A stretch of DNA of 64,000 bases from an uncultured SAR116 cluster alpha proteobacterium (GTDB lineage Bacteria > Pseudomonadota > Alphaproteobacteria > Puniceispirillales > Marisalimonadaceae): assembly GCA_902622745.1 (NCBI GenBank), contig CACNQW010000001.1, forward strand, positions 34,886 to 98,885, read 5' to 3'. Shown here one piece after another: positions 41,788 through 58,323 of the stretch (the first letter of the stretch is position 1; the number at the start of each line of letters is the position of its first letter). The notes under the pieces were generated by a model. The model worked only from the letters and a program-made list of their open reading frames with translations, was not told the origin of the DNA and made no database searches. Both the position numbers and the translations under genes were made by a program.

Positions 41788-41877
41788 GGAGAGGTGGCCG
41801 AGTGGTTTAAGGCGCACGCCTGGAAAGTGTGTAGAGGTGAAAGCCTCTCGAGGGTTCGAATCCCTCTCTCTCCGCCA
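41788..41877 (+). tRNA. tRNA-Ser (anticodon GGA)
   Basis: Class II tRNA: GGAGAGG acceptor, CTGGAAA anticodon loop, long variable arm, GGGTTCGAATCCC T-arm, encoded CCA. Confidence 0.95.
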
Positions 41878-41990
41878 TGTACCTAACTATGTTATGTCAT
41901 ACTGTGTCATAACTCTAAGCTGTGCTTGGTTTTAATTGACGAAACCTGTTTAAGTTATTTCATTATAAATCATCTTTAATCAACCCAACT

Positions 41991-42013
41991 TGTAGACCGA
42001 GTTGTAGACTGGA
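41991..42013 (+). promoter_or_regulatory. Putative integrase arm-type binding sites (left end)
   Basis: TGTAGACcgagtTGTAGACTgga; same 12-bp-spaced pair as in the right-end repeats (TGTAGACtaaatTGTAGACTgca). Confidence 0.6.
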
Positions 42014-42019
42014 GATGAC

Positions 42020-43201
42020 ATGAAAAAATTAAATGCGAGAAAATTATTATTTTTACCTAAGGACAAATACCATGATGGAGATGGACTATATATAACTATT
42101 TCCAGCCCTGGAAAAGGTAAATGGAGTTTTCGTTATACTATTAACAAAAGAGCAAGAGAAATGGGTTTAGGTAAATTCCCTGATGTATCTCTTTTAGAGG
42201 CAAGACAACATGCATTAAGTAACAAACAATTACTTAAAGAAAAAATTGACCCTATCGATGAGAAAAATAGAATTGAGGTTTTAAGACAACAACAAAATAA
42301 AAAGTTTTCAGACATTGCAGAGTTATATATTTTTAAAAAGAAAGAAGCTGAATGGACTAATCCCAAAAGTGCTCAGCAATGGCGAAACTCTATTAATACT
42401 CATGCTTCACCATTGTTAGATACTAAGCCTTTTATTGATATTAATCGTGACGATATTATTAGTGTTCTACAGCCTATTTGGAATACAAAAACAGAAACAG
42501 CAAGACGTATTCAACAAAGATTATTTCTTATATTTTCATTTGCAAAAATTAGGGGTTGGTACGACAAAGATAATCCAGCTTCTTGGAAGGAACACCTTAT
42601 TCATATTCTTCCAGACCCTTATAAAATTCAGAAGGTAAAACACCATCCTTCTCTTCATTATTCAAAAATAACTAATTTTTATGAAGATTTGAGTCAATTT
42701 GAACATCTATCAGCTTATGCATTAAAATTTTTAATTTTAACAGCAACAAGAACAAAAGAAGTAATTGAGGCTGAGTTTAATGAATTTGATTTGAAAAGAG
42801 GAATGTGGACCATACCAGCTGAAAAAATGAAAGTAAGAAAAGAGCATAAAGTTCCTTTATCAGATGAAGCTATAACAATAGTAGAGTTAATGAGAAGAAA
42901 GCATAATCATCACTTTGTTTTTACAAACCCAGCAACAGGAAATCATATTTCTAATGGAGCTATGCTTGTATTTTTAAAAAAAGAATTTTCTCATCTTAAA
43001 ATTACAGTTCATGGTTTTAGGTCAACTTTTAGAGATTGGGCAGAAGAAACAGGAAATTACTCTCATCATGCAATAGAGTTTTGTTTAGCTCATCAATTAC
43101 CAAGTAAAGTAGAAAAAGCATATTTAAGGACAGATTTAATAGGGCAAAGAAAAAAAATTATGAAAGATTGGGAAAAATATTTATTGTTTTACTCTTCATA
43201 G
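42020..43201 (+). CDS. P4-type tyrosine integrase (DUF4102 N-terminal domain)
   Basis: 393 aa; N-terminal DGDGLYITISSPGKGKWSFRYTINKRAREMGLGKFPDVSLLEAR; catalytic TATRTKEV, HGFRSTFRDWAEE, KAYLRTD. Confidence 0.94.
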   Translation: MKKLNARKLLFLPKDKYHDGDGLYITISSPGKGKWSFRYTINKRAREMGLGKFPDVSLLEARQHALSNKQLLKEKIDPIDEKNRIEVLRQQQNKKFSDIAELYIFKKKEAEWTNPKSAQQWRNSINTHASPLLDTKPFIDINRDDIISVLQPIWNTKTETARRIQQRLFLIFSFAKIRGWYDKDNPASWKEHLIHILPDPYKIQKVKHHPSLHYSKITNFYEDLSQFEHLSAYALKFLILTATRTKEVIEAEFNEFDLKRGMWTIPAEKMKVRKEHKVPLSDEAITIVELMRRKHNHHFVFTNPATGNHISNGAMLVFLKKEFSHLKITVHGFRSTFRDWAEETGNYSHHAIEFCLAHQLPSKVEKAYLRTDLIGQRKKIMKDWEKYLLFYSS

Positions 43202-43244
43202 TATTGCGAGAAACATGTTTAAATGTTATAATAGATTAACTATA

Positions 43245-43345
43245 TACCCACATTTTATGTGAGCCAGAATACGGCGAGGCGAAACCCTGGGAAGTTATTC
43301 CGTGCATGTAAACATGCTATTCTTCGAAATAGATTACTAAATCTA
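43245..43345 (+). ncRNA. Candidate structured RNA between integrase and HTH operon
   Basis: Dense complementary segments: CACAT-TTT-ATGTG, ACGG...CCGT, CCAG...CTGG, GGAA-GTTA-TTCC, GCATGT-AA-ACATGC, CTATT-CTTCGA-AATAG, in an otherwise AT-rich intergenic region. Confidence 0.4.
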
Positions 43346-43396
43346 GCGACGTAGTATCCAAAAATCTTAAATTAAAATTTAATCGGAGTTACGCAA

Positions 43397-43630
43397 ATGA
43401 AATCTATTTATTTAAGTAAAAAAGAAGTTTCTAGAAAGCTGAATATTAGCCCTTCAACTGTTGTGAGATGGTCAAAAGAACAAATTATTCCATTACCATT
43501 TATGTTAGGAAATAAAGTCGTATGGGATGAAAATGAACTTAATTTGGCTATAGAAGAAATGAAAAAACAAAGAGGTTTTTTTGGTCACAAACCTGAAAGG
43601 GGAGAAAAAAATGTCAATAAAACTCAATGA
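43397..43630 (+). CDS. Small AlpA/excisionase-like helix-turn-helix protein
   Basis: 77 aa; YLSKKEVSRKLNISPSTVVRWSKEQIIPLPFMLGNKVVWDENELNLAIEEM. Confidence 0.78.
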   Translation: MKSIYLSKKEVSRKLNISPSTVVRWSKEQIIPLPFMLGNKVVWDENELNLAIEEMKKQRGFFGHKPERGEKNVNKTQ

Positions 43631-43991
43631 AAGTCAAGTTATGGCTTGCAATCTTTTAGCAACAGGCATGAAAACGACAGAAATTTTGAACCAATTAAAG
43701 ATAAGACCTGAAACACTTTCTCGTTGGAAACAAAATGAAGAATTTATTCGACAACTTAAAAAGACACAGGAAAAAATTCTTGAAACTATTATCAATACAC
43801 AAAAACATATTTTAATTCTCTCGCAAGATATTTTAATAAATGCTTTAAACAATGATAAGCTTGATGAGTTTAAAAAAGCAACGATAGCTCTTAGATATAT
43901 AGGCTTAATAAGAGGTAAAAATAATGTTGAAGATAAATACACAAAGCAATTATCTGATTTAAATTTTGAAAATAGTTTTGGTTTTAAATGA
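43611..43991 (+). CDS. Helix-turn-helix (terminase-small-subunit/phBC6A51-like) protein
   Basis: Start placed at MSIKLNESQ after GGGGAGAAAAAA; LLATGMKTTEILNQLKIRPETLSRWKQNEEFI; overlaps the upstream stop. Confidence 0.65.
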   Translation: MSIKLNESQVMACNLLATGMKTTEILNQLKIRPETLSRWKQNEEFIRQLKKTQEKILETIINTQKHILILSQDILINALNNDKLDEFKKATIALRYIGLIRGKNNVEDKYTKQLSDLNFENSFGFK

Positions 43992-44662
43992 ATAACGAAA
44001 TTAAATTAATATTGGAAGGTGTAAAAAAAGGAGATCAAATTGGAGGCCCTTATGAATTATCAAAAATACTTGCAAAGAGTTTACATGCGAATGATGGATT
44101 TAATAAAGATGATTTAACAAAAAGGTATTTAGAATGGTGGAAGGCAGATGCTTTTGATACAGGGCCAACATATGCAAGTGTATTTACCAACATATTAAAA
44201 GGTTATGACCACGAAAAAGCTGTTTTGAAAACACATCAAGATTTTGATGAAAATACAGCAGGATGTGGTCCAGCTCATAGGTGTATGCCCTTGGCAGGAT
44301 TTACAAAAATTCCAGCAGAAGAACTCATAGGCTTAGCTCGGCAAGAAGCTAAAATTACACACTATCATCAGGATGCGGGGAATGGTTCAGCAATTGTCGT
44401 TTTGTTATGTAGATGTTTATTAGAAGGAAAGAATATTGATAATGCTTGTCTTGAGGTATCTAAAAATAAAGAGTTAATTGAAAGTTGGAAACAGGTTGAA
44501 AATGCCAAACTAAGTCCTGATGGATATGTTTATAATGTTATTCACTCAGCTCTACATTTTATAAAAAATAAAAAAACATTAGAGGACTCAATTAAGTTTT
44601 CAGGCAAAGCTAATTATAGTTCTATTATTTTTTCTGTTCTAAACGAACTTATCCCAACATAG
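43988..44662 (+). CDS. ADP-ribosylglycohydrolase family protein
   Basis: 224 aa; KGDQIGGPYE, DTGPTYASVF, AGCGPAHRCMPLA, ITHYHQDAGNGSAIVVLLCR; ATGA overlap with upstream gene. Confidence 0.82.
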   Translation: MNNEIKLILEGVKKGDQIGGPYELSKILAKSLHANDGFNKDDLTKRYLEWWKADAFDTGPTYASVFTNILKGYDHEKAVLKTHQDFDENTAGCGPAHRCMPLAGFTKIPAEELIGLARQEAKITHYHQDAGNGSAIVVLLCRCLLEGKNIDNACLEVSKNKELIESWKQVENAKLSPDGYVYNVIHSALHFIKNKKTLEDSIKFSGKANYSSIIFSVLNELIPT

Positions 44663-45062
44663 CTTTTCTTTTGGATTTAGAAGTTGATTTGAATAAATTA
44701 TTTAAATCTTCTATCGATACTTTGTCATTATCTAATTTTATAGTGTTACTACTATCTCCAGTATAGAGCATTAAATGAGGCATCAAACTTTTCATAAGGC
44801 CAGAAAATTCATTTAGGACATTTTCTTTGCTTGTAATGTCTAGATTTTTAATTTTGGGTAATTTTTGAATTACTTCAAGAGCTTCTAGGAGTTTTGTCTT
44901 TGGTTCTGTCTGTTTTGAAAAACTTTTATGTTTATCAGTTTTATAATAAAATATATGTTTAGTAATACTTTCATTTTCTTTTAAATCAATTCTCAAGCTA
45001 GGATGTTCCCAATCTTTAAAAGGATGATTTTGTAATTCCTTTTGTATTATTATTTTTTTCAA
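44649..45062 (-). CDS. Hypothetical protein, convergent with the ADP-ribosylglycohydrolase gene
   Basis: 137 aa ORF, 14-bp tail overlap; no family recognised. Confidence 0.55.
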   Translation of the reverse strand: MKKIIIQKELQNHPFKDWEHPSLRIDLKENESITKHIFYYKTDKHKSFSKQTEPKTKLLEALEVIQKLPKIKNLDITSKENVLNEFSGLMKSLMPHLMLYTGDSSNTIKLDNDKVSIEDLNNLFKSTSKSKRKAMLG

Positions 45063-45122
45063 TTTATTTTCCTTATAATTTATATCTATGAGATAAATAT
45101 CATATATTATATAATTTAAATT

Positions 45123-47405
45123 ATGAAAAAATTTGTAATCTTTTTGATTAAATTAAGTGGTTTATTTAGTGTATCATATTTTTTTATTATATCTTTAAGT
45201 CACGCTTATAGTGATAATGTAGCTACGTGTTTATCGGGGAAATATCCTACTTTATGCAATAAAAAATATTTGAACTCAAATCAGTTAATACAAACTGAAA
45301 AAGCTGAAAAAAGGGAAAATCTGAAGACTTGTCTATCTGGGAAGTATCCTACTTTATGTAATCATAATTTATTAACTCAACAAGAGTTAAAAAGAGTAAA
45401 AAGAGCCGAAGGAAATGATAACCTAAAAACTTGTCTATCCGGAAAATACCCTTCATTATGCAAAAAAAATTTATTAACTTCAGAACAATTAAAAGCAACA
45501 GAAAAAGCTGAGAAAGCAGAAAACCTTAAAACTTGTTTATCTGGTAATTATCGTTCATTATGCAAAAAAAATTTATTAACGCAAAAGGAATTGGATAGAG
45601 TCAACAAAGTCGAAAAAGAGGTAAATCTTAGAACTTGCGTATCAGGTAAATATCCAAGCCTTTGTAATATTAAGTTGTTAAATGAAAAACAGATTTGTCA
45701 ATTTTATGATATTAGAGAAGAATTTAAAGTTGAAGCTTATATAAGAGGCCTTTCCTGTAATAGCAAAAAAATTGTGAAAAAAGAAGAAGATATATCTACA
45801 AAATCAAGTAGCATGAAAAAAGTAAAAGATACTCCTAAAACTGATGCTTACGAGACTACATATTTTGAATTCCCAAACCCTTTCAAAACTAACTTATTAG
45901 ATGAACATGCTTATGTGCAAATTAGACTTGGTCTTATGACACAGTATGAAGCAAGAGTAATGGATGCTGTTGTCCAACATCAACCAAGCCTAACTTCTAC
46001 AATACTCTCAACTATAAAAAAATTTAAGTGTGAGGACATCATGAACAATGATGGTCAAAATAGGATGAAAGAATTTTCAAACAATCTTTTAAAGTCAATC
46101 AATTTAAAATTAGAAGAATTAGGTGAGTTTCCTGGGATTGAAGGTGTTTATTTTACAAGTTTTATAACTCAAGGGTGTGATGAATCACTAAAATTGCTAG
46201 AACAAAAAATTGCTTCTGCAAAAAAAGAAAAGAAAAAAAGAATAGCTCTGAAAAGAAAAGTAGAGGAAGAAGAAAGTAAACGTAAAGCACTTGAACAACG
46301 CATAGCTGAGTTAGAAAAGAAGAATATAGAACTTCAAAAATCTAAGCAAATAAAACAGAAGTCATCCAATGAAATAGGTTCTGGTTTTTATGTAAGTAAG
46401 TTAAGACATGTTGTAACTAATCAACATGTCGTAGACAAATGTAAAAAAATTACTGTTGGTTATGATAATGCATCTCAGATAAAAGCAGATTTGGTTGCTT
46501 CCGATAAAAGAAATGATTTAGCTATTTTACAAACTTCTTCTATGGAAATGGCATCTGCCGAGGAAAAATCATTTTTGCAAAAATTAAAGATGATTATGCC
46601 AAATATTGTCTCAAAAGGATTAATGCGTTTAGAGGATGTTTCAGGAGGAGAAGAAATTTTTGTCGCTGGATTTCCCCTTGGCACTTCTATTAGTGATGAA
46701 ATGAAATTAGATGATGGAATAGTCAGGGCTACAAAAGGCATGGACAATGATGTAACACAATTTATAATTTCATCTGACATTCAAAAAGGGAATAGTGGTG
46801 GGCCTATTTATGATAAAAGAGAATGTAGTTTATTTGAATCAACAATCGCTTATATGGGAGAGGGATTTGTTAAGGATTTTACTTCTACAGAAAATAGAGG
46901 TAATGACGGAAAAAATGATTTTTGTGAAGTAAAATTGACAGCAAATGTATCTAGGCCAAATGGCAAACCTGACCCTAACTTTAATTTAAACGCTAAAATT
47001 GAACCAGATAATGTATTTGAAGATGGAAGCAAAGACTTTTTGCTGAAGGGGATTGTTTCACAAAAATCTTATATTCATATGTTCAATTGGTATCCTAGTG
47101 AAGATAATAAAAATTATCTATGCATATCTGAATATTTCAAAAATGAGTATAGCATGCCTATTACCAATATAAAATTTCCACCAAGTGGTCAAATTACTCT
47201 GAGTTTTCCAAAATCTTTAGAGCGTGATTATGTTTCGGAATATGTTGTTATCATTGCTACAAAAGAAAAACTAAATATACCATGTATCACTGACACAAAA
47301 ACAAATTCTATTACAATTGAAAGAAAAAAATTATTGGAAATAATAAACAATCTAGATAGACGAACATGGACTAAGCACATGCTTGCTTATAAGATAATAA
47401 GATAA
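45123..47405 (+). CDS. Secreted trypsin-like (S1C/DegP-like) serine protease with five N-terminal Cys-containing repeats and a coiled coil
   Basis: 760 aa; signal peptide; five copies of (N)xxTC[LV]SG[KN]Y[PR][TS]LC; triad in VTNQHVVD, DKRNDLAIL, IQKGNSGGPIYD. Confidence 0.85.
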   Translation: MKKFVIFLIKLSGLFSVSYFFIISLSHAYSDNVATCLSGKYPTLCNKKYLNSNQLIQTEKAEKRENLKTCLSGKYPTLCNHNLLTQQELKRVKRAEGNDNLKTCLSGKYPSLCKKNLLTSEQLKATEKAEKAENLKTCLSGNYRSLCKKNLLTQKELDRVNKVEKEVNLRTCVSGKYPSLCNIKLLNEKQICQFYDIREEFKVEAYIRGLSCNSKKIVKKEEDISTKSSSMKKVKDTPKTDAYETTYFEFPNPFKTNLLDEHAYVQIRLGLMTQYEARVMDAVVQHQPSLTSTILSTIKKFKCEDIMNNDGQNRMKEFSNNLLKSINLKLEELGEFPGIEGVYFTSFITQGCDESLKLLEQKIASAKKEKKKRIALKRKVEEEESKRKALEQRIAELEKKNIELQKSKQIKQKSSNEIGSGFYVSKLRHVVTNQHVVDKCKKITVGYDNASQIKADLVASDKRNDLAILQTSSMEMASAEEKSFLQKLKMIMPNIVSKGLMRLEDVSGGEEIFVAGFPLGTSISDEMKLDDGIVRATKGMDNDVTQFIISSDIQKGNSGGPIYDKRECSLFESTIAYMGEGFVKDFTSTENRGNDGKNDFCEVKLTANVSRPNGKPDPNFNLNAKIEPDNVFEDGSKDFLLKGIVSQKSYIHMFNWYPSEDNKNYLCISEYFKNEYSMPITNIKFPPSGQITLSFPKSLERDYVSEYVVIIATKEKLNIPCITDTKTNSITIERKKLLEIINNLDRRTWTKHMLAYKIIR

Positions 47406-47410
47406 TAAGG

Positions 47411-47941
47411 ATGTTAAAAAATTTTTTCATAGTAATAATTTTTAATTTTTTAATTTCGATTTCTTTTTTATCAAAAGCTCAAGCTGGAAGAATTCTTAAC
47501 TGCAGTAACTGCGATAATGATAAAAAAGCTGATATAAAACCAAAAATTTTTAATAAAAAAGAAAAAACTAATGATGGCAATAATGACGATAGCAATAGAA
47601 AAAGTAGTAAAATTGAACTTTTAAATGAGATGCCAGAATGGTGTCTCAACCCTAAAATATCAATAGTTGCTATTCAAGTTTGTGGAATTGCTAGTTATGG
47701 TGACATAGAAGCATCTAGAAGTGCATCAGAACTTGAAGGAAGAACTCAGTTAGCTCGAAGATTTGACAGTTTAATCAAAGAAGCATGTACAGAAGAAACG
47801 TTAGAAGAAAATCAAAAATTAGTATGTAAAAAACAGAGCGATACAAAATTTAGAGTTGAAAGAGCAACAGTACTTAAGCGTAAAACTGTGGTGATTGACA
47901 ATAAATATACAACATTTACCTTAATAGTTTATCCATTATAA
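47411..47941 (+). CDS. Secreted LPP20-like protein
   Basis: 176 aa; signal peptide; MPEWCLNPKISIVAIQVCGIASYGDIEASRSASELEGRTQLAR resembles LPP20 domains; 5 bp after the protease gene. Confidence 0.6.
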   Translation: MLKNFFIVIIFNFLISISFLSKAQAGRILNCSNCDNDKKADIKPKIFNKKEKTNDGNNDDSNRKSSKIELLNEMPEWCLNPKISIVAIQVCGIASYGDIEASRSASELEGRTQLARRFDSLIKEACTEETLEENQKLVCKKQSDTKFRVERATVLKRKTVVIDNKYTTFTLIVYPL

Positions 47942-47942
47942 C

Positions 47943-50588
47943 TTATTTACCGTATATGATTTGAACTTTTTGGTCTCTACCATAATATCTTCTTGCAAAA
48001 TACGTCATTGTTTCATCAAGGTAATCCCTGAGCTCATTGTCATTTATTTTACCATCTTTATTCTTATCAGCTTCGCCACTCATCGCTTTCAAAAAGTATT
48101 TTGTAAAAAGACTATGTGAATTATCTTCCTCCCAAGAGGCCATTTGAGACGGAGACCCAGCTGCTATTACCTTTACATTTTTGGGAACTAGGCTTTGTTT
48201 TGGTGTAATAATCATTCTTGATGATTTTTTAAAAAGGGTTCCAGATTGACTAATGCCCGAAAAACAAGCTTCCAAAATAACTGTAACAGATTTGGCAGGT
48301 AATTTTCCTAAGTTAGAATATAAAGTTGATAATGGATATCCTGAAAATTGGATTGTTTGTGCATCAGCATCTGATGGAACAAGATAAGTTTTTCCATCCC
48401 CATCACCTGGCACACCGTGTCCAGCATAATAAATATAAACATTCGAAACATTTGGTTTGATCCAATTAAATAATTTCCCTTTGTGAGAAGAGGAGTCTCC
48501 AAAAGTACTTAATAGTTGTGCTGCAGTAGCATCTTCAAGATAAATTATATTTCCTTCTTTAATTCCAAGAGATTGTACAAAATATTGTTTTATTCCTTGA
48601 GCATCTGCATACGCTGGATTTACGTTTGGAATATCTTTTCCCTGTTTTTCATAATTAGCGTTTCCAATGATTACAGCAATATCAAAAGGTTTCTCTTTTG
48701 ACTTCCTAAAAGAGATATTTATTGATTTTTTTGAAAAATTGTCTGAAGAGTTTTTTACAACACCTAACTTGGAATTTGATTTTTCAGTATTGGTAATTTT
48801 AATATTTGAATTATCATATAAATCATAAGGAGATAAATTTGCTAACAAGTCAATTTTTTTACTAAAAAGACTTATTTTTTTCATTCTATCTTCATTGAAC
48901 CGTTTAGTTTTTTTTAATAATTTGCCATTATCCCAAATACCAAATGTCCAAGTTTTTTTATTTTTGTGCTCATATAAATAACCGTATCCATTTGGCTTAT
49001 TTTTTTTAAATTCACCAGTGTATATTTCGACACCATTTAAATCTTTGTTATATGACAGACCTATGCCTTCTTTCATACCCTTAACAACTTGACCTACATA
49101 TTTTTCATTTTTGCTAATAAAGTATCCCATTGTGTTTGGAAAATCTTCTTTCCAATTTCCAAAGTAGGTATTTCCGTTTTGGTCAATTCTAAGACCAAAT
49201 CCATTTGCTTTATTTGATTTCCAATATCCATAATATGACATGAAATTTGTTAGCTTATTTGTACCATCCAAATCTCTAAAAATAGTTCCTTTCCCCGACA
49301 AACCATCTAAATACCATTCTCCAAAAATTGTATTTGATAATTGTCCTAAAGTAGTATCATCGGCTTTATTGTATTGTACACCCCATCCCGCTGGAAAAAG
49401 ACTTTTTGTTTTACCATAAAAAATAACATTATTATCTTCATTATAATTCATTGCATTACCAGAAAATTCATTATCTTTGAAAATACCAATCATATGGCGA
49501 TTTTTTTGTTTCATATAACCTAATCCATGAACTTTTCTATTTCGAAAAAACCCAATTAAGTGTTCGTTATCATTTCCTAATTTAGCAAAACAATTATCAA
49601 TACTTTTTTTTGAATCAACACACCTTCTTTCATAATTTTTATCTAAATAATTAATTACTAGTTTCCCATTTTCCCATTTTCCAAAATCTATTTTATTATT
49701 TGTTGTATTAATAAAAATACCTTCTCCATTAAATTTCAAATTTTCCCATTCACCGTAATAAATTCCATAATCACTTTTAGACAATCCTTTTACTAATTTG
49801 CTATCTTTCCAATCTCCTATAAGGATAGAGTTCTGAACGCTATTTATCCTGGCGCCTATTCCTTTGAATTCACCATTTTTAAATTCTCCTCTATGCCAAT
49901 AAGAAGGACTAATTCGAATTTCTCCAACCCCATCTGGATTTCCATTTAAAAAACTACCTCTATAAAAATTTCCATTTATAAATGTTTCTCCAATGCAATT
50001 TGAAAACTCTTTTGCTTTTTTATTTGATGGACATGGTGTAAGTGAGTTTCCATCTTCTAAATTTGACCTTATATTGTCATCTTTGATTTTAGAGTCAATT
50101 TTGCCATTTTTAAAATTTCCAACATATTTTTTTCCGTCTTTTGATGTTAAAGAACCATGACCATGCATCTTTCCGTTTTTTACTTCACCTTCGTATGTTA
50201 AACCGTTTTTCCATATATATATACCTATACCATTTGGAATGTCGTTTCTAAAATCGCCTTTGTAAACTGTACCATCAGGAATACTCATTTCTCCATACCC
50301 GTGAACTTTATTATTTAACCATTCACCAACATATTTTTTCCCATTTGCCCAAATATTTGTCCCTTGACCATTTCTTTTATCATTCTTCCACTCACCAATA
50401 TAATTTTCTCCAGAAGAAAATTCGTATTTCCCAAAACAATTATCCTTAAATGCTTCTTGGTTTTTAGGGCATGGTTTTAGTGCAAAACTAGAAGATGAAA
50501 TAAAAACAATTTTAAAAAAAATTATAATTATAATTTTAAAGAACTTCATATTTGAAAAATAACAAAAATATTTTCTCAGGTAAATCAT
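47943..50588 (-). CDS. Secreted MORN-repeat / caspase-like (peptidase C14) fusion protein with EF-hand-like loop
   Basis: 881 aa; many MORN motifs (YxGExxxxxxxGxGxxxxxxGxxYxGxW); C-terminal DIAVIIGNANYEKQ, YIYYAGHGVPGDGDG (His), VILEACFSG (Cys), DKNKDGKINDNEL. Signal peptide suggests the start may be the internal MKFFKIIII. Confidence 0.9.
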   Translation of the reverse strand: MIYLRKYFCYFSNMKFFKIIIIIFFKIVFISSSSFALKPCPKNQEAFKDNCFGKYEFSSGENYIGEWKNDKRNGQGTNIWANGKKYVGEWLNNKVHGYGEMSIPDGTVYKGDFRNDIPNGIGIYIWKNGLTYEGEVKNGKMHGHGSLTSKDGKKYVGNFKNGKIDSKIKDDNIRSNLEDGNSLTPCPSNKKAKEFSNCIGETFINGNFYRGSFLNGNPDGVGEIRISPSYWHRGEFKNGEFKGIGARINSVQNSILIGDWKDSKLVKGLSKSDYGIYYGEWENLKFNGEGIFINTTNNKIDFGKWENGKLVINYLDKNYERRCVDSKKSIDNCFAKLGNDNEHLIGFFRNRKVHGLGYMKQKNRHMIGIFKDNEFSGNAMNYNEDNNVIFYGKTKSLFPAGWGVQYNKADDTTLGQLSNTIFGEWYLDGLSGKGTIFRDLDGTNKLTNFMSYYGYWKSNKANGFGLRIDQNGNTYFGNWKEDFPNTMGYFISKNEKYVGQVVKGMKEGIGLSYNKDLNGVEIYTGEFKKNKPNGYGYLYEHKNKKTWTFGIWDNGKLLKKTKRFNEDRMKKISLFSKKIDLLANLSPYDLYDNSNIKITNTEKSNSKLGVVKNSSDNFSKKSINISFRKSKEKPFDIAVIIGNANYEKQGKDIPNVNPAYADAQGIKQYFVQSLGIKEGNIIYLEDATAAQLLSTFGDSSSHKGKLFNWIKPNVSNVYIYYAGHGVPGDGDGKTYLVPSDADAQTIQFSGYPLSTLYSNLGKLPAKSVTVILEACFSGISQSGTLFKKSSRMIITPKQSLVPKNVKVIAAGSPSQMASWEEDNSHSLFTKYFLKAMSGEADKNKDGKINDNELRDYLDETMTYFARRYYGRDQKVQIIYGK

Positions 50589-50595
50589 CTTTCTA

Positions 50596-50686
50596 TGCAG
50601 ACTAAATTGTAGACTGCAAAACTATAAGTCTATAAAATATAAGTAAATCAGATGATTAAAATGGAATAACGAGGAGGTTGTCTCCG
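50596..50686 (+). repeat. att-like island repeat, copy A
   Basis: tgcagactaaattgtagactgcaaaactataagtctataaaatataagtaaatcagatgattaaaatggaataacgaggaggttgtctccg. Confidence 0.9.
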
Positions 50687-50701: not shown

Positions 50702-51007
50702 TTATGAAATTATTTCATCAGTATTATTGTCAACTATAACTGGATTTTTATAAAATTTTATATCAGGTGCTGAGAACCTTTCTGTAATCCATTTAATTCT
50801 ATCTTCATCAAACCAACTTTTTGCATTCTCTATATTATTAAAACAATACACTCCACCCGCTAAATTCTTTGAAGTATCACAGATATAGTTTTTTCTAATT
50901 AAACCTGGAGTATCCTTATATATGGGTGATGTTTCTAAAAACTTCTCTTTTAAAACTGGGTCAGTTAATTCATCACCTATCTTAAAAGTAACAATTGCAA
51001 TTATCAT
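50702..51007 (-). CDS. YdhR-like putative monooxygenase
   Basis: 101 aa; ETSPIYKDTPGLIRKNYICDTSKNLAGGVYCFNNIENAKSWFDEDRIKWITERF. Confidence 0.72.
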   Translation of the reverse strand: MIIAIVTFKIGDELTDPVLKEKFLETSPIYKDTPGLIRKNYICDTSKNLAGGVYCFNNIENAKSWFDEDRIKWITERFSAPDIKFYKNPVIVDNNTDEIIS

Positions 51008-57567: not shown

Positions 57568-57909
57568 ATGATGGCTAATTCAGGTATATATTGGATTGAT
57601 ATTACTTTTAATTTTTGTGTAAAGTTTTTGCACAAAGTTGCTGATCATCTTGGTATTTCTTATGAAGAAATCAATGTTTGGATATTTGTAATAATAGGTC
57701 CTTCATTTTTTCTAATATCTGTTTATTTAAATTATTATTTTTACAAAAAAACAAAAATATTAAAGAAAATAATTGAATTTCAAAATAAAGAATTGACAGA
57801 AATTAATGAAGTAGAGGTGGAAGAAAAAAAAATAGATTACCTTAAAATTTTAATTATTATTATACTCATTATTTTTATAATTTATTTTTTAGAAGCAAAT
57901 AATTTATAG
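57568..57909 (+). CDS. Small membrane hypothetical protein
   Basis: 113 aa with N- and C-terminal hydrophobic segments. Confidence 0.5.
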   Translation: MMANSGIYWIDITFNFCVKFLHKVADHLGISYEEINVWIFVIIGPSFFLISVYLNYYFYKKTKILKKIIEFQNKELTEINEVEVEEKKIDYLKILIIIILIIFIIYFLEANNL

Positions 57910-57960
57910 TTATAATTGTTAAAATTTTCTGTATTAAATTGTATCTTCACATTTAACTTA

Positions 57961-58323
57961 TTAATAAACAAATGTTCTATCTGATTGTAAAGATAGATTA
58001 AGAAGGGTTTTAGGAAAAACTTTAATTGAATTGGCATCTTTTAAATCTTTTTCTGTGACACCTCTGATTTCACAAGATATTGCAGAAACATATATTGGTA
58101 CTTTCGCATTCACTAAAATAGAAAAATGTTCGCTAAGTTTTCCAGTGCCTAAACCAACCAAGCTATCTAACACAGGTTTCCTTATTAAACTCACTGCATC
58201 AGCGTTTAAGAAAACTGTAACTTCGTGCCCCTCTTCCACAGCTGTTCTTGCCAGCATAAATCCTAGAGAAGCTTTTGTGGGATTATTTGTACCATTTGTT
58301 ATATTAAATAACAGTTTTGCCAT
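57961..58323 (-). CDS. DsrE/DsrF-like family protein
   Basis: 120 aa; LFNITNGTNNPTKASLGFMLARTAVEEGHEVTVFLNADAV; VPIYVSAISCEIRGV. Confidence 0.8.
   Translation of the reverse strand: MAKLLFNITNGTNNPTKASLGFMLARTAVEEGHEVTVFLNADAVSLIRKPVLDSLVGLGTGKLSEHFSILVNAKVPIYVSAISCEIRGVTEKDLKDANSIKVFPKTLLNLSLQSDRTFVY

What the first reader, a model, noticed from the sequence alone, without database searches (positions are those of the whole stretch)
45123..50588. Secreted trypsin-like protease, LPP20-like protein and MORN-caspase gene set in a mobile island
Two proteases with intact catalytic motifs sit tail-to-tail: an S1-type protease (H in NQHVVD, D in KRNDLAIL, S in GNSGGP) and a C14 caspase-like protein (YYAGHG / EACFSG), with an LPP20-like protein between. 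All three appear to have signal peptides, and the stops of the convergent genes are about 1 bp apart. Trypsin-like and caspase-like proteases co-occur in known bacterial conflict/cell-death systems, but those are usually cytoplasmic. An exported set with MORN repeats and a Cys-repeat module could be a periplasmic/envelope protease cascade used in defense, competition or envelope surveillance. This is the best candidate in the window for an undescribed system.
Basis: partly seen in the sequence, partly recalled or inferred. Interest (0 to 1): 0.8.

Follow-up and report, generated by a model that had tools for sequence, protein, structure and literature searches.

The report
Exported caspase–trypsin system with shuffled sensors
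In SAR116 ocean bacteria, a mobile element that elsewhere carries anti-phage genes carries here a member of an apparently undescribed set of exported proteases (a caspase, a trypsin-like protease and two small envelope proteins) whose sensor parts are swapped freely between genomes, which hints at a defence or alarm system working in the cell envelope; in this copy the trypsin part has lost its end and is probably inactive.

Summary
The three genes are real, at the stated coordinates, and their association is conserved: of 30 loci with the DUF4384-type partner, 28 have the LPP20-like gene adjacent, 23 a trypsin gene and 21 a caspase within 10 kb. One distant alphaproteobacterium has a five-gene directon: caspase, TPR-trypsin, DUF4384, GNA1162-like/TPR lipoprotein, LPP20. 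The window copy lies in an ~8.7-kb integrative element at tRNA-Ser(GGA), 41.88-50.63 kb; related SAR116 elements carry McrBC or type III restriction in that slot. Corrections: (1) the 'protease' is an in-frame fusion of a trypsin gene to its DUF4384-like partner that lost ~80 residues after GNSGGP, so the triad is there but the fold is incomplete; (2) its N-terminus is Cys repeats plus a FliL domain, while a sister element in another genus has PnrA/Bmp there. N-termini are shuffled (29% vs 67% identity for heads) and shared between trypsins and caspases. Best reading: an envelope-localised, sensor-polymorphic protease system, probably defensive, with the caspase as likely effector here. The gene set is firm; function is inferred. 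No description was found in the papers searched.

The parts
41788..41877 (+). tRNA-Ser(GGA), left end and integration site of the element, next to lepA
   Evidence: ARAGORN; the same tRNA flanks the integrase in G055, G050, G003, G021, G031, G004, G041, G034
41878..50633 (.). integrative element of about 8.7 kb; right edge taken where homology to unoccupied sites resumes
   Evidence: Window 50634 onward aligns at 85% DNA identity to sequence ~300 bp behind tRNA-Ser in G029 and G040; no att repeat of 13 bp or more
42020..43201 (+). tyrosine integrase
   Evidence: PF22022/PF13356/PF00589; relatives in 34 of 58 family genomes
43397..43630 (+). AlpA/HTH_17 regulator, element core gene
   Evidence: PF12728; conserved behind the integrase
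43611..43991 (+). small HTH protein, element core gene
   Evidence: PF13022-like; conserved in related elements
43988..44662 (+). ADP-ribosylglycohydrolase-like cargo gene; role here unknown
   Evidence: PF03747 E 3e-22; also in the elements of G050 and G022
44649..45062 (-). 137-aa cargo gene of unknown function
   Evidence: 83% identical gene beside the same hydrolase in G050
45123..47405 (+). 760-aa exported fusion: signal peptide, Cys repeats, FliL domain, coiled-coil linker, truncated trypsin, DUF4384-type partner
45222..45740 (+). five 34-aa Cys repeats (C-L-S-G-K-Y-P-S-L-C ... L-L-T)
   Evidence: repeat starts at residues 36, 70, 104, 138, 172; no relative of this stretch among family genomes
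45861..46172 (+). FliL domain (PF03748), diverged from the flagellar FliL of relatives
   Evidence: 47-55% identity and a long branch
46344..46817 (+). trypsin/HtrA-like protease domain, cut off after GNSGGPIYDK
   Evidence: PF13365; alignment A3
46812..46820 (+). fusion point: about 80 aa of trypsin C-terminus and about 57 aa of the partner's N-terminus are missing relative to G034
46821..47402 (+). DUF4384-type partner domain (component C)
   Evidence: alignment A1; 14 of 17 members match PF14326
47411..47941 (+). LPP20-like exported protein (component D)
   Evidence: alignment A2; PF02169 in 8 of 16 members
47943..50588 (-). exported MORN-repeat caspase (component E)
   Evidence: PF02493 and PF00656; 63% identical protein at the same site in G034
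48000..48680 (-). caspase C14 domain with His/Cys pair; dN/dS 0.07 against G034

Best explanation
This is the mobile-element version of an exported multi-component protease system. Core parts: C (DUF4384-type protein), D (LPP20-like protein, usually with a lipobox), an exported caspase, and often B (TPR-trypsin) with A (TPR and GNA1162-like lipoprotein). Proposed mechanism: A, C and D form an envelope scaffold that holds caspase and trypsin quiet. The variable N-termini (MORN, FliL, PnrA/Bmp, Sel1 with PDZ, Cys modules) watch for or mimic envelope targets. When these are disturbed, for example by phage adsorption, a competitor or envelope damage, the protease heads are released and act on envelope proteins, killing or arresting the cell or destroying the intruder's tool. 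In the window copy the trypsin domain is probably dead and may serve as sensor/adaptor fused to C, so the MORN-caspase is the likely effector. Shown: gene set, order, mobility, domain shuffling, truncation, purifying selection on the caspase. Inferred: localisation (from sequence), scaffold, trigger, outcome and defensive role.
For: Conserved linkage: 30 C loci, of which 28 have D adjacent, 23 trypsin adjacent, 21 caspase within 10 kb, 15 component A. Seven of these loci were found outside the family by C alone; 7 of 7 have D and a caspase, 4 of 7 also A and B. Five-gene directon caspase-B-C-A-D in a different order of the class (L268). Trypsin-C-D order as in the window in L204, L213 and L233. 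N-terminal shuffling: SAR116 trypsins 29% N-terminus vs 67% head; SAR11 trypsins leader 48%, middle 20%, head 71%. The same N-terminal repeats and linker occur on caspase and trypsin heads. Same site in two genera, FliL vs PnrA/Bmp sensor. Related elements carry McrBC, type III R-M, a helicase, or a Sel1-caspase. Caspase head dN/dS 0.07.
Against: No experiment and no expression data. The core module also sits outside integrase elements in many genomes, compatible with housekeeping. The element cargo argument is guilt by association on few complete elements, since many contigs end inside them. Only weak defence-database similarity (PADLOC caspase E 9e-4; RT-Protease_XI E 5e-14, through the trypsin domain only). 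AlphaFold models were too poor to test any complex or the truncation.
Confidence: 0.5

Rival explanations
1. Envelope quality control or stress response: an HtrA/Deg-like trypsin and a caspase degrade damaged envelope proteins, with LPP20/GNA1162-like lipoproteins as assembly factors; mobility is incidental.
For: The trypsin is closest to MucD/DegP-type proteases in PDB; the core operon is often chromosomal and without an integrase; lipobox in 19 of 24 D and 12 of 16 A proteins.
Against: Patchy: 23 of 136 genomes of the order, 2 of 387 class genomes beyond the window's own, 0 of the phylum sample. Strong N-terminal shuffling and tandem arrays and cargo slots shared with restriction systems are unusual for housekeeping.
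Confidence: 0.22
2. Secreted effectors against competing cells or grazers: the variable N-termini are delivery or receptor-binding modules and the protease heads are the weapons.
For: Polymorphic N-termini with constant leader and head, tandem arrays and near-identical heads among paralogues resemble polymorphic effector families.
Against: No secretion-system markers or immunity genes were seen in the loci read; A and D proteins and part of the caspases look like envelope lipoproteins, which points to proteins kept by the cell that makes them.
Confidence: 0.12
3. The window copy is a decaying remnant: after the deletion that fused trypsin to C, the cassette has no function and is carried passively.
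For: The trypsin lacks its last strands; trypsin-head dN/dS against G034 is higher (0.36) than that of C (0.13) or the caspase (0.07).
Against: All three reading frames are open, the fusion is in frame, and caspase and C are under purifying selection in the comparison with G034 (the comparison averages over time before and after the fusion).
Confidence: 0.14

Closest known systems
NTP-dependent conflict systems with trypsin/caspase effectors (Kaur et al. 2020, PMC7159879)
   Same: Caspase and trypsin-like effectors, variable partner domains, proposed proteolytic cascade
   Different: Those centre on NTPases (MoxR/vWA/VMAP, STAND, GAP1) and EAD/Trypco adaptors; no NTPase or EAD was found in this element, and all parts here look exported
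DGR-diversified sensor systems of multicellular bacteria (PMC10907252)
   Same: Diversified sensor domains coupled to trypsin or caspase effectors; some targets predicted periplasmic
   Different: There diversity comes from diversity-generating retroelements acting on C-type lectin folds; here whole N-terminal domains are exchanged; no such retroelement was seen in the loci read, though none was searched for specifically
HtrA/Deg periplasmic proteases (MucD, DegP)
   Same: Closest solved relatives of the trypsin domain; periplasmic serine proteases
   Different: Variable N-termini in place of the usual Deg layout; genetic link to caspase, DUF4384-type and LPP20-like proteins
Prokaryotic caspase homologues (orthocaspases; survey PMC3501461)
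   Same: Peptidase C14 with conserved His/Cys, often with an N-terminal hydrophobic segment; DUF4384 is mentioned in papers on cyanobacterial and bacterial orthocaspases (search hits only)
   Different: The survey text contains no mention of MORN or trypsin, and this operon was not found described

Membership tests
NTP-dependent caspase/trypsin conflict systems (Kaur 2020) | core NTPase (STAND, MoxR or GAP1 type) in the cassette | tested here: not met
   Pfam scan of the element's genes found none
NTP-dependent caspase/trypsin conflict systems (Kaur 2020) | EAD or Trypco adaptor domains | tested here: inconclusive
   none hit in Pfam, NCBIfam or PADLOC; the caspase is nearest to NCBIfam 'caspase, EACC1-associated' but far under its cut-off (66 vs 140 bits)
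Active trypsin/HtrA peptidase | His-Asp-Ser triad | tested here: met
Active trypsin/HtrA peptidase | complete second barrel after the catalytic Ser | tested here: not met
   domain ends after GNSGGPIYDK; all full-length relatives continue about 75-80 aa
Peptidase C14 (caspase) | caspase fold profile with His/Cys pair | tested here: met
   PF00656 E 4e-13; His/Cys
LPP20 lipoprotein family | significant match to PF02169 | tested here: inconclusive
   window protein: none; family: 8 of 16 members, best E 6e-6
LPP20 lipoprotein family | lipobox | tested here: not met
   window protein has a Sec-type leader without lipobox (sequence); 19 of 24 relatives have one
DUF4384 family | match to PF14326 | tested here: inconclusive
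   14 of 17 alignment members match at E up to 0.01, the best 8e-7; the window segment itself aligns with them
tRNA-targeting integrative element | integrase next to tRNA, unoccupied sites in relatives | tested here: met
tRNA-targeting integrative element | direct repeat of the tRNA end at the far side | tested here: not met
   no repeat of 13 bp or more
Anti-phage defence system | protects against phage | not testable with these tools
   needs an experiment

The most novel reading that the evidence does not exclude
A new kind of bacterial envelope immunity or alarm system: caspase and trypsin heads are interchangeable effectors on a large repertoire of exchangeable exported sensor or decoy domains (some derived from envelope proteins such as FliL and PnrA), assembled on a DUF4384/LPP20/GNA1162-like lipoprotein scaffold, and spread by defence-carrying elements in SAR116, with related polymorphic exported trypsins in SAR11.
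Probability: 0.35. Interest if true: 0.9.

Novelty: new variant of a known kind. Interest (0 to 1): 0.7.

Why it matters
Known bacterial caspase/trypsin conflict systems are mostly cytoplasmic and built around NTPases. An NTPase-free, exported version with shuffled sensors in SAR116, with related proteins in SAR11, would move such systems to the envelope, where phages and competitors first touch the cell. It would also give a role to exported prokaryotic caspases, whose function has long been open, and a concrete five-gene set to test.

Tried and rejected
AlphaFold of the truncated trypsin plus C part (A3) and of an intact relative (A4) gave mean pLDDT 41 and 47; both are too poor to use, so no fold search was made. 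Viral-contig scans failed four times, the machine gave no answer. The first genome-contig scan with the window protease found nothing. PDB searches with the C and D profiles gave nothing significant; two cystatin-B entries at E 0.35-0.5 are below any threshold. TAL-effector hits of the Cys-repeat region were rejected as repeat/composition artefacts. A recent capture of FliL from the host was rejected: long branch, 47-55% identity. A flagellar role was considered because FliL occurs here and LPP20 relatives include flagellar proteins (my own knowledge), and rejected: FliL was not seen in the other exported trypsins, and no flagellar gene was recognised next to the module loci (most neighbours were not scanned).

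Full report
What is in the window. The 760-aa protein at 45123-47405 has a signal-peptide-like start, five 34-aa Cys repeats, a FliL domain (PF03748, residues 247-350, E 4e-12), a coiled-coil linker, a trypsin domain (PF13365, residues 419-565) and a 194-aa C-terminal part that hits no Pfam model by itself. The 176-aa protein at 47411-47941 hits no Pfam model; its homologues match LPP20 (PF02169). The 881-aa protein at 47943-50588 on the minus strand carries MORN repeats and a C14 caspase domain. The convergent stops are 1 bp apart.

The host. The window is G000 contig C1, a fragmentary genome (1.39 Mb in 74 contigs, 68% complete).

The C-terminal part is a second gene. In relatives the region after the trypsin domain is a separate ~290-aa exported protein next to a ~530-aa TPR-trypsin; 14 of 17 alignment members match DUF4384. 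The best comparison is G034, a different genus, which has a related element at the same site (L054). There a full trypsin (...GNSGGPIYDKYGNIVGVV...VMVVCYN, stop) is followed by a separate partner gene. The window reads ...GNSGGPIYDKR directly into ECSLFESTIAYMGEGF, which corresponds to the middle of the partner. About 80 residues of trypsin and about 57 of the partner are missing, in frame. In an alignment with nine relatives the window is the only protein ending at that point; the triad residues are kept in all full-length relatives. From established knowledge of the chymotrypsin fold, the strands after the catalytic Ser form the S1 site and close the second barrel, so the window trypsin is probably inactive. 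An assembly artefact at the junction cannot be excluded without reads.

The set is conserved. Homologues of C, D, trypsin and caspase cluster in many genomes. In the SAR116 family the usual order is D-C-B on one strand and A-E on the other, where A is a TPR lipoprotein with a GNA1162-like segment (7 of 9 members, best E 6e-7) and E is the caspase. A search of 136 genomes of the order with the C profile hit 23. The seven loci outside the family were picked by C alone: all seven have D adjacent and a caspase nearby, and four also have A and B. Over 30 C loci, 28 have D adjacent, 23 a trypsin, 21 a caspase within 10 kb and 15 component A. The 30 include loci chosen partly for trypsin or LPP20 matches, so the unbiased figure is the seven. 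A genome of another order (G191, L268) has caspase, B, C, A and D in one directon. Trypsin-C-D in the order of the window recurs in L204, L213 and L233, MAGs named Rhodospirillales or Rhodospirillaceae. Outside the order the C component is rare: 2 further hits in a class sample of 387, none beyond the window's own genome in a phylum sample of 397.

The set is exported. Hydrophobic N-terminal cores are present in most A, C, D, trypsin and caspase proteins; lipobox-like motifs are common in A (12 of 16) and D (19 of 24). This is a simple sequence rule, not a signal-peptide predictor.

The sensor ends are shuffled. Exported trypsins of SAR116 share heads at 67% mean identity while their N-termini average 29%. 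The N-termini include FliL, PnrA/Bmp and MORN, and, from the sequences, Sel1-like and PDZ-like segments and Cys modules. Several genomes have tandem arrays. In SAR11 genomes the same kind of protein has leader 48%, middle 20% and head 71%. Caspases and trypsins share the same N-terminal repeat modules and coiled-coil linker, so the two heads look like alternative effectors of one system. The FliL domain of the window is an old or fast-evolving, diverged relative of flagellar FliL.

The element. Integrase, HTH_17 and a second HTH gene form a core at tRNA-Ser(GGA) beside lepA, or at tRNA-Ser(GCT), in many family genomes. Several relatives have no integrase at the GGA site. Homology to such sites resumes at window ~50634, giving an element of about 8.7 kb; no att repeat was found. 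In related elements the cargo slot holds McrBC (L136, L142), type III restriction-modification with a UvrD-like helicase (L138), a large restriction-type helicase (L137), or a Sel1-caspase (L145). In G055 and G056 it starts with exported proteins with a similar leader, cut by contig ends. G011 carries related caspases at the same tRNA-Ser(GGA) site, without a recognised integrase.

Selection. Between the window and G034, dN/dS is 0.07 for the caspase head, 0.13 for C, 0.17 for the integrase, 0.31 for MORN plus linker and 0.36 for the trypsin head. dS is near or above 1, so the values are rough. The pattern fits a constrained caspase, faster-changing sensor parts and a less constrained trypsin.

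How it probably works. The A, C and D proteins would hold the proteases at the envelope; the variable ends would detect or mimic envelope targets; disturbance would release the caspase (and, in intact copies, the trypsin) to cut envelope proteins. The scaffold, trigger and outcome are inferred. The defensive reading rests on cargo context, patchy distribution and sensor shuffling. Envelope quality control is the main rival.

Comparison with the literature. Trypsin and caspase effectors with variable sensors are known from NTPase-centred conflict systems (PMC7159879) and from DGR-diversified systems (PMC10907252). No NTPase was found among the element's genes, and the parts look exported. The survey of prokaryotic caspases (PMC3501461) contains no mention of MORN or trypsin and notes that many caspase-associated domains seem extracellular. 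Searches combining caspase with LPP20, MORN or CsgG, and a search for DUF4384, found no description of this set. Only open-licence papers were searched.

Verdict. The gene set is firm, the mechanism open.

Noticed in passing
L216-L227 (SAR11 contigs): Exported trypsins with a constant leader and head but an unrelated middle; in several genomes the gene lies 1-3 kb upstream of a gene that looks like EF-Tu, as if the middle were replaced in place.
   Followed up: partly
window 43988-45062: An ADP-ribosylglycohydrolase-like gene and a convergent 137-aa gene travel together in the element (also in G050, L134); possible separate module.
   Followed up: no
L136, L137, L138, L142: Elements of the same integrase family carry McrBC, type III R-M with a UvrD-like helicase, and a large helicase; a vWA/kinase-like cluster lies further along in L137: a defence-cargo element family of SAR116.
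   Followed up: partly
window 50702-51007 and L184, L185: A ~101-aa gene sits directly behind tRNA-Ser in some relatives (G029, G040) and at the far edge of the element in the window; other relatives (G051) have the genes of window 57568-58323 there, so 41.9-57.5 kb is a layered variable region.
   Followed up: partly
window 45222-45740: Five near-identical 34-aa Cys repeats with no relative of this stretch among the family genomes searched.
   Followed up: partly
L133, L140, L054, L082, L078: Contigs of several genomes end inside these protease genes, as expected if the repeated modules break assemblies; such gene families are probably under-counted.
   Followed up: no
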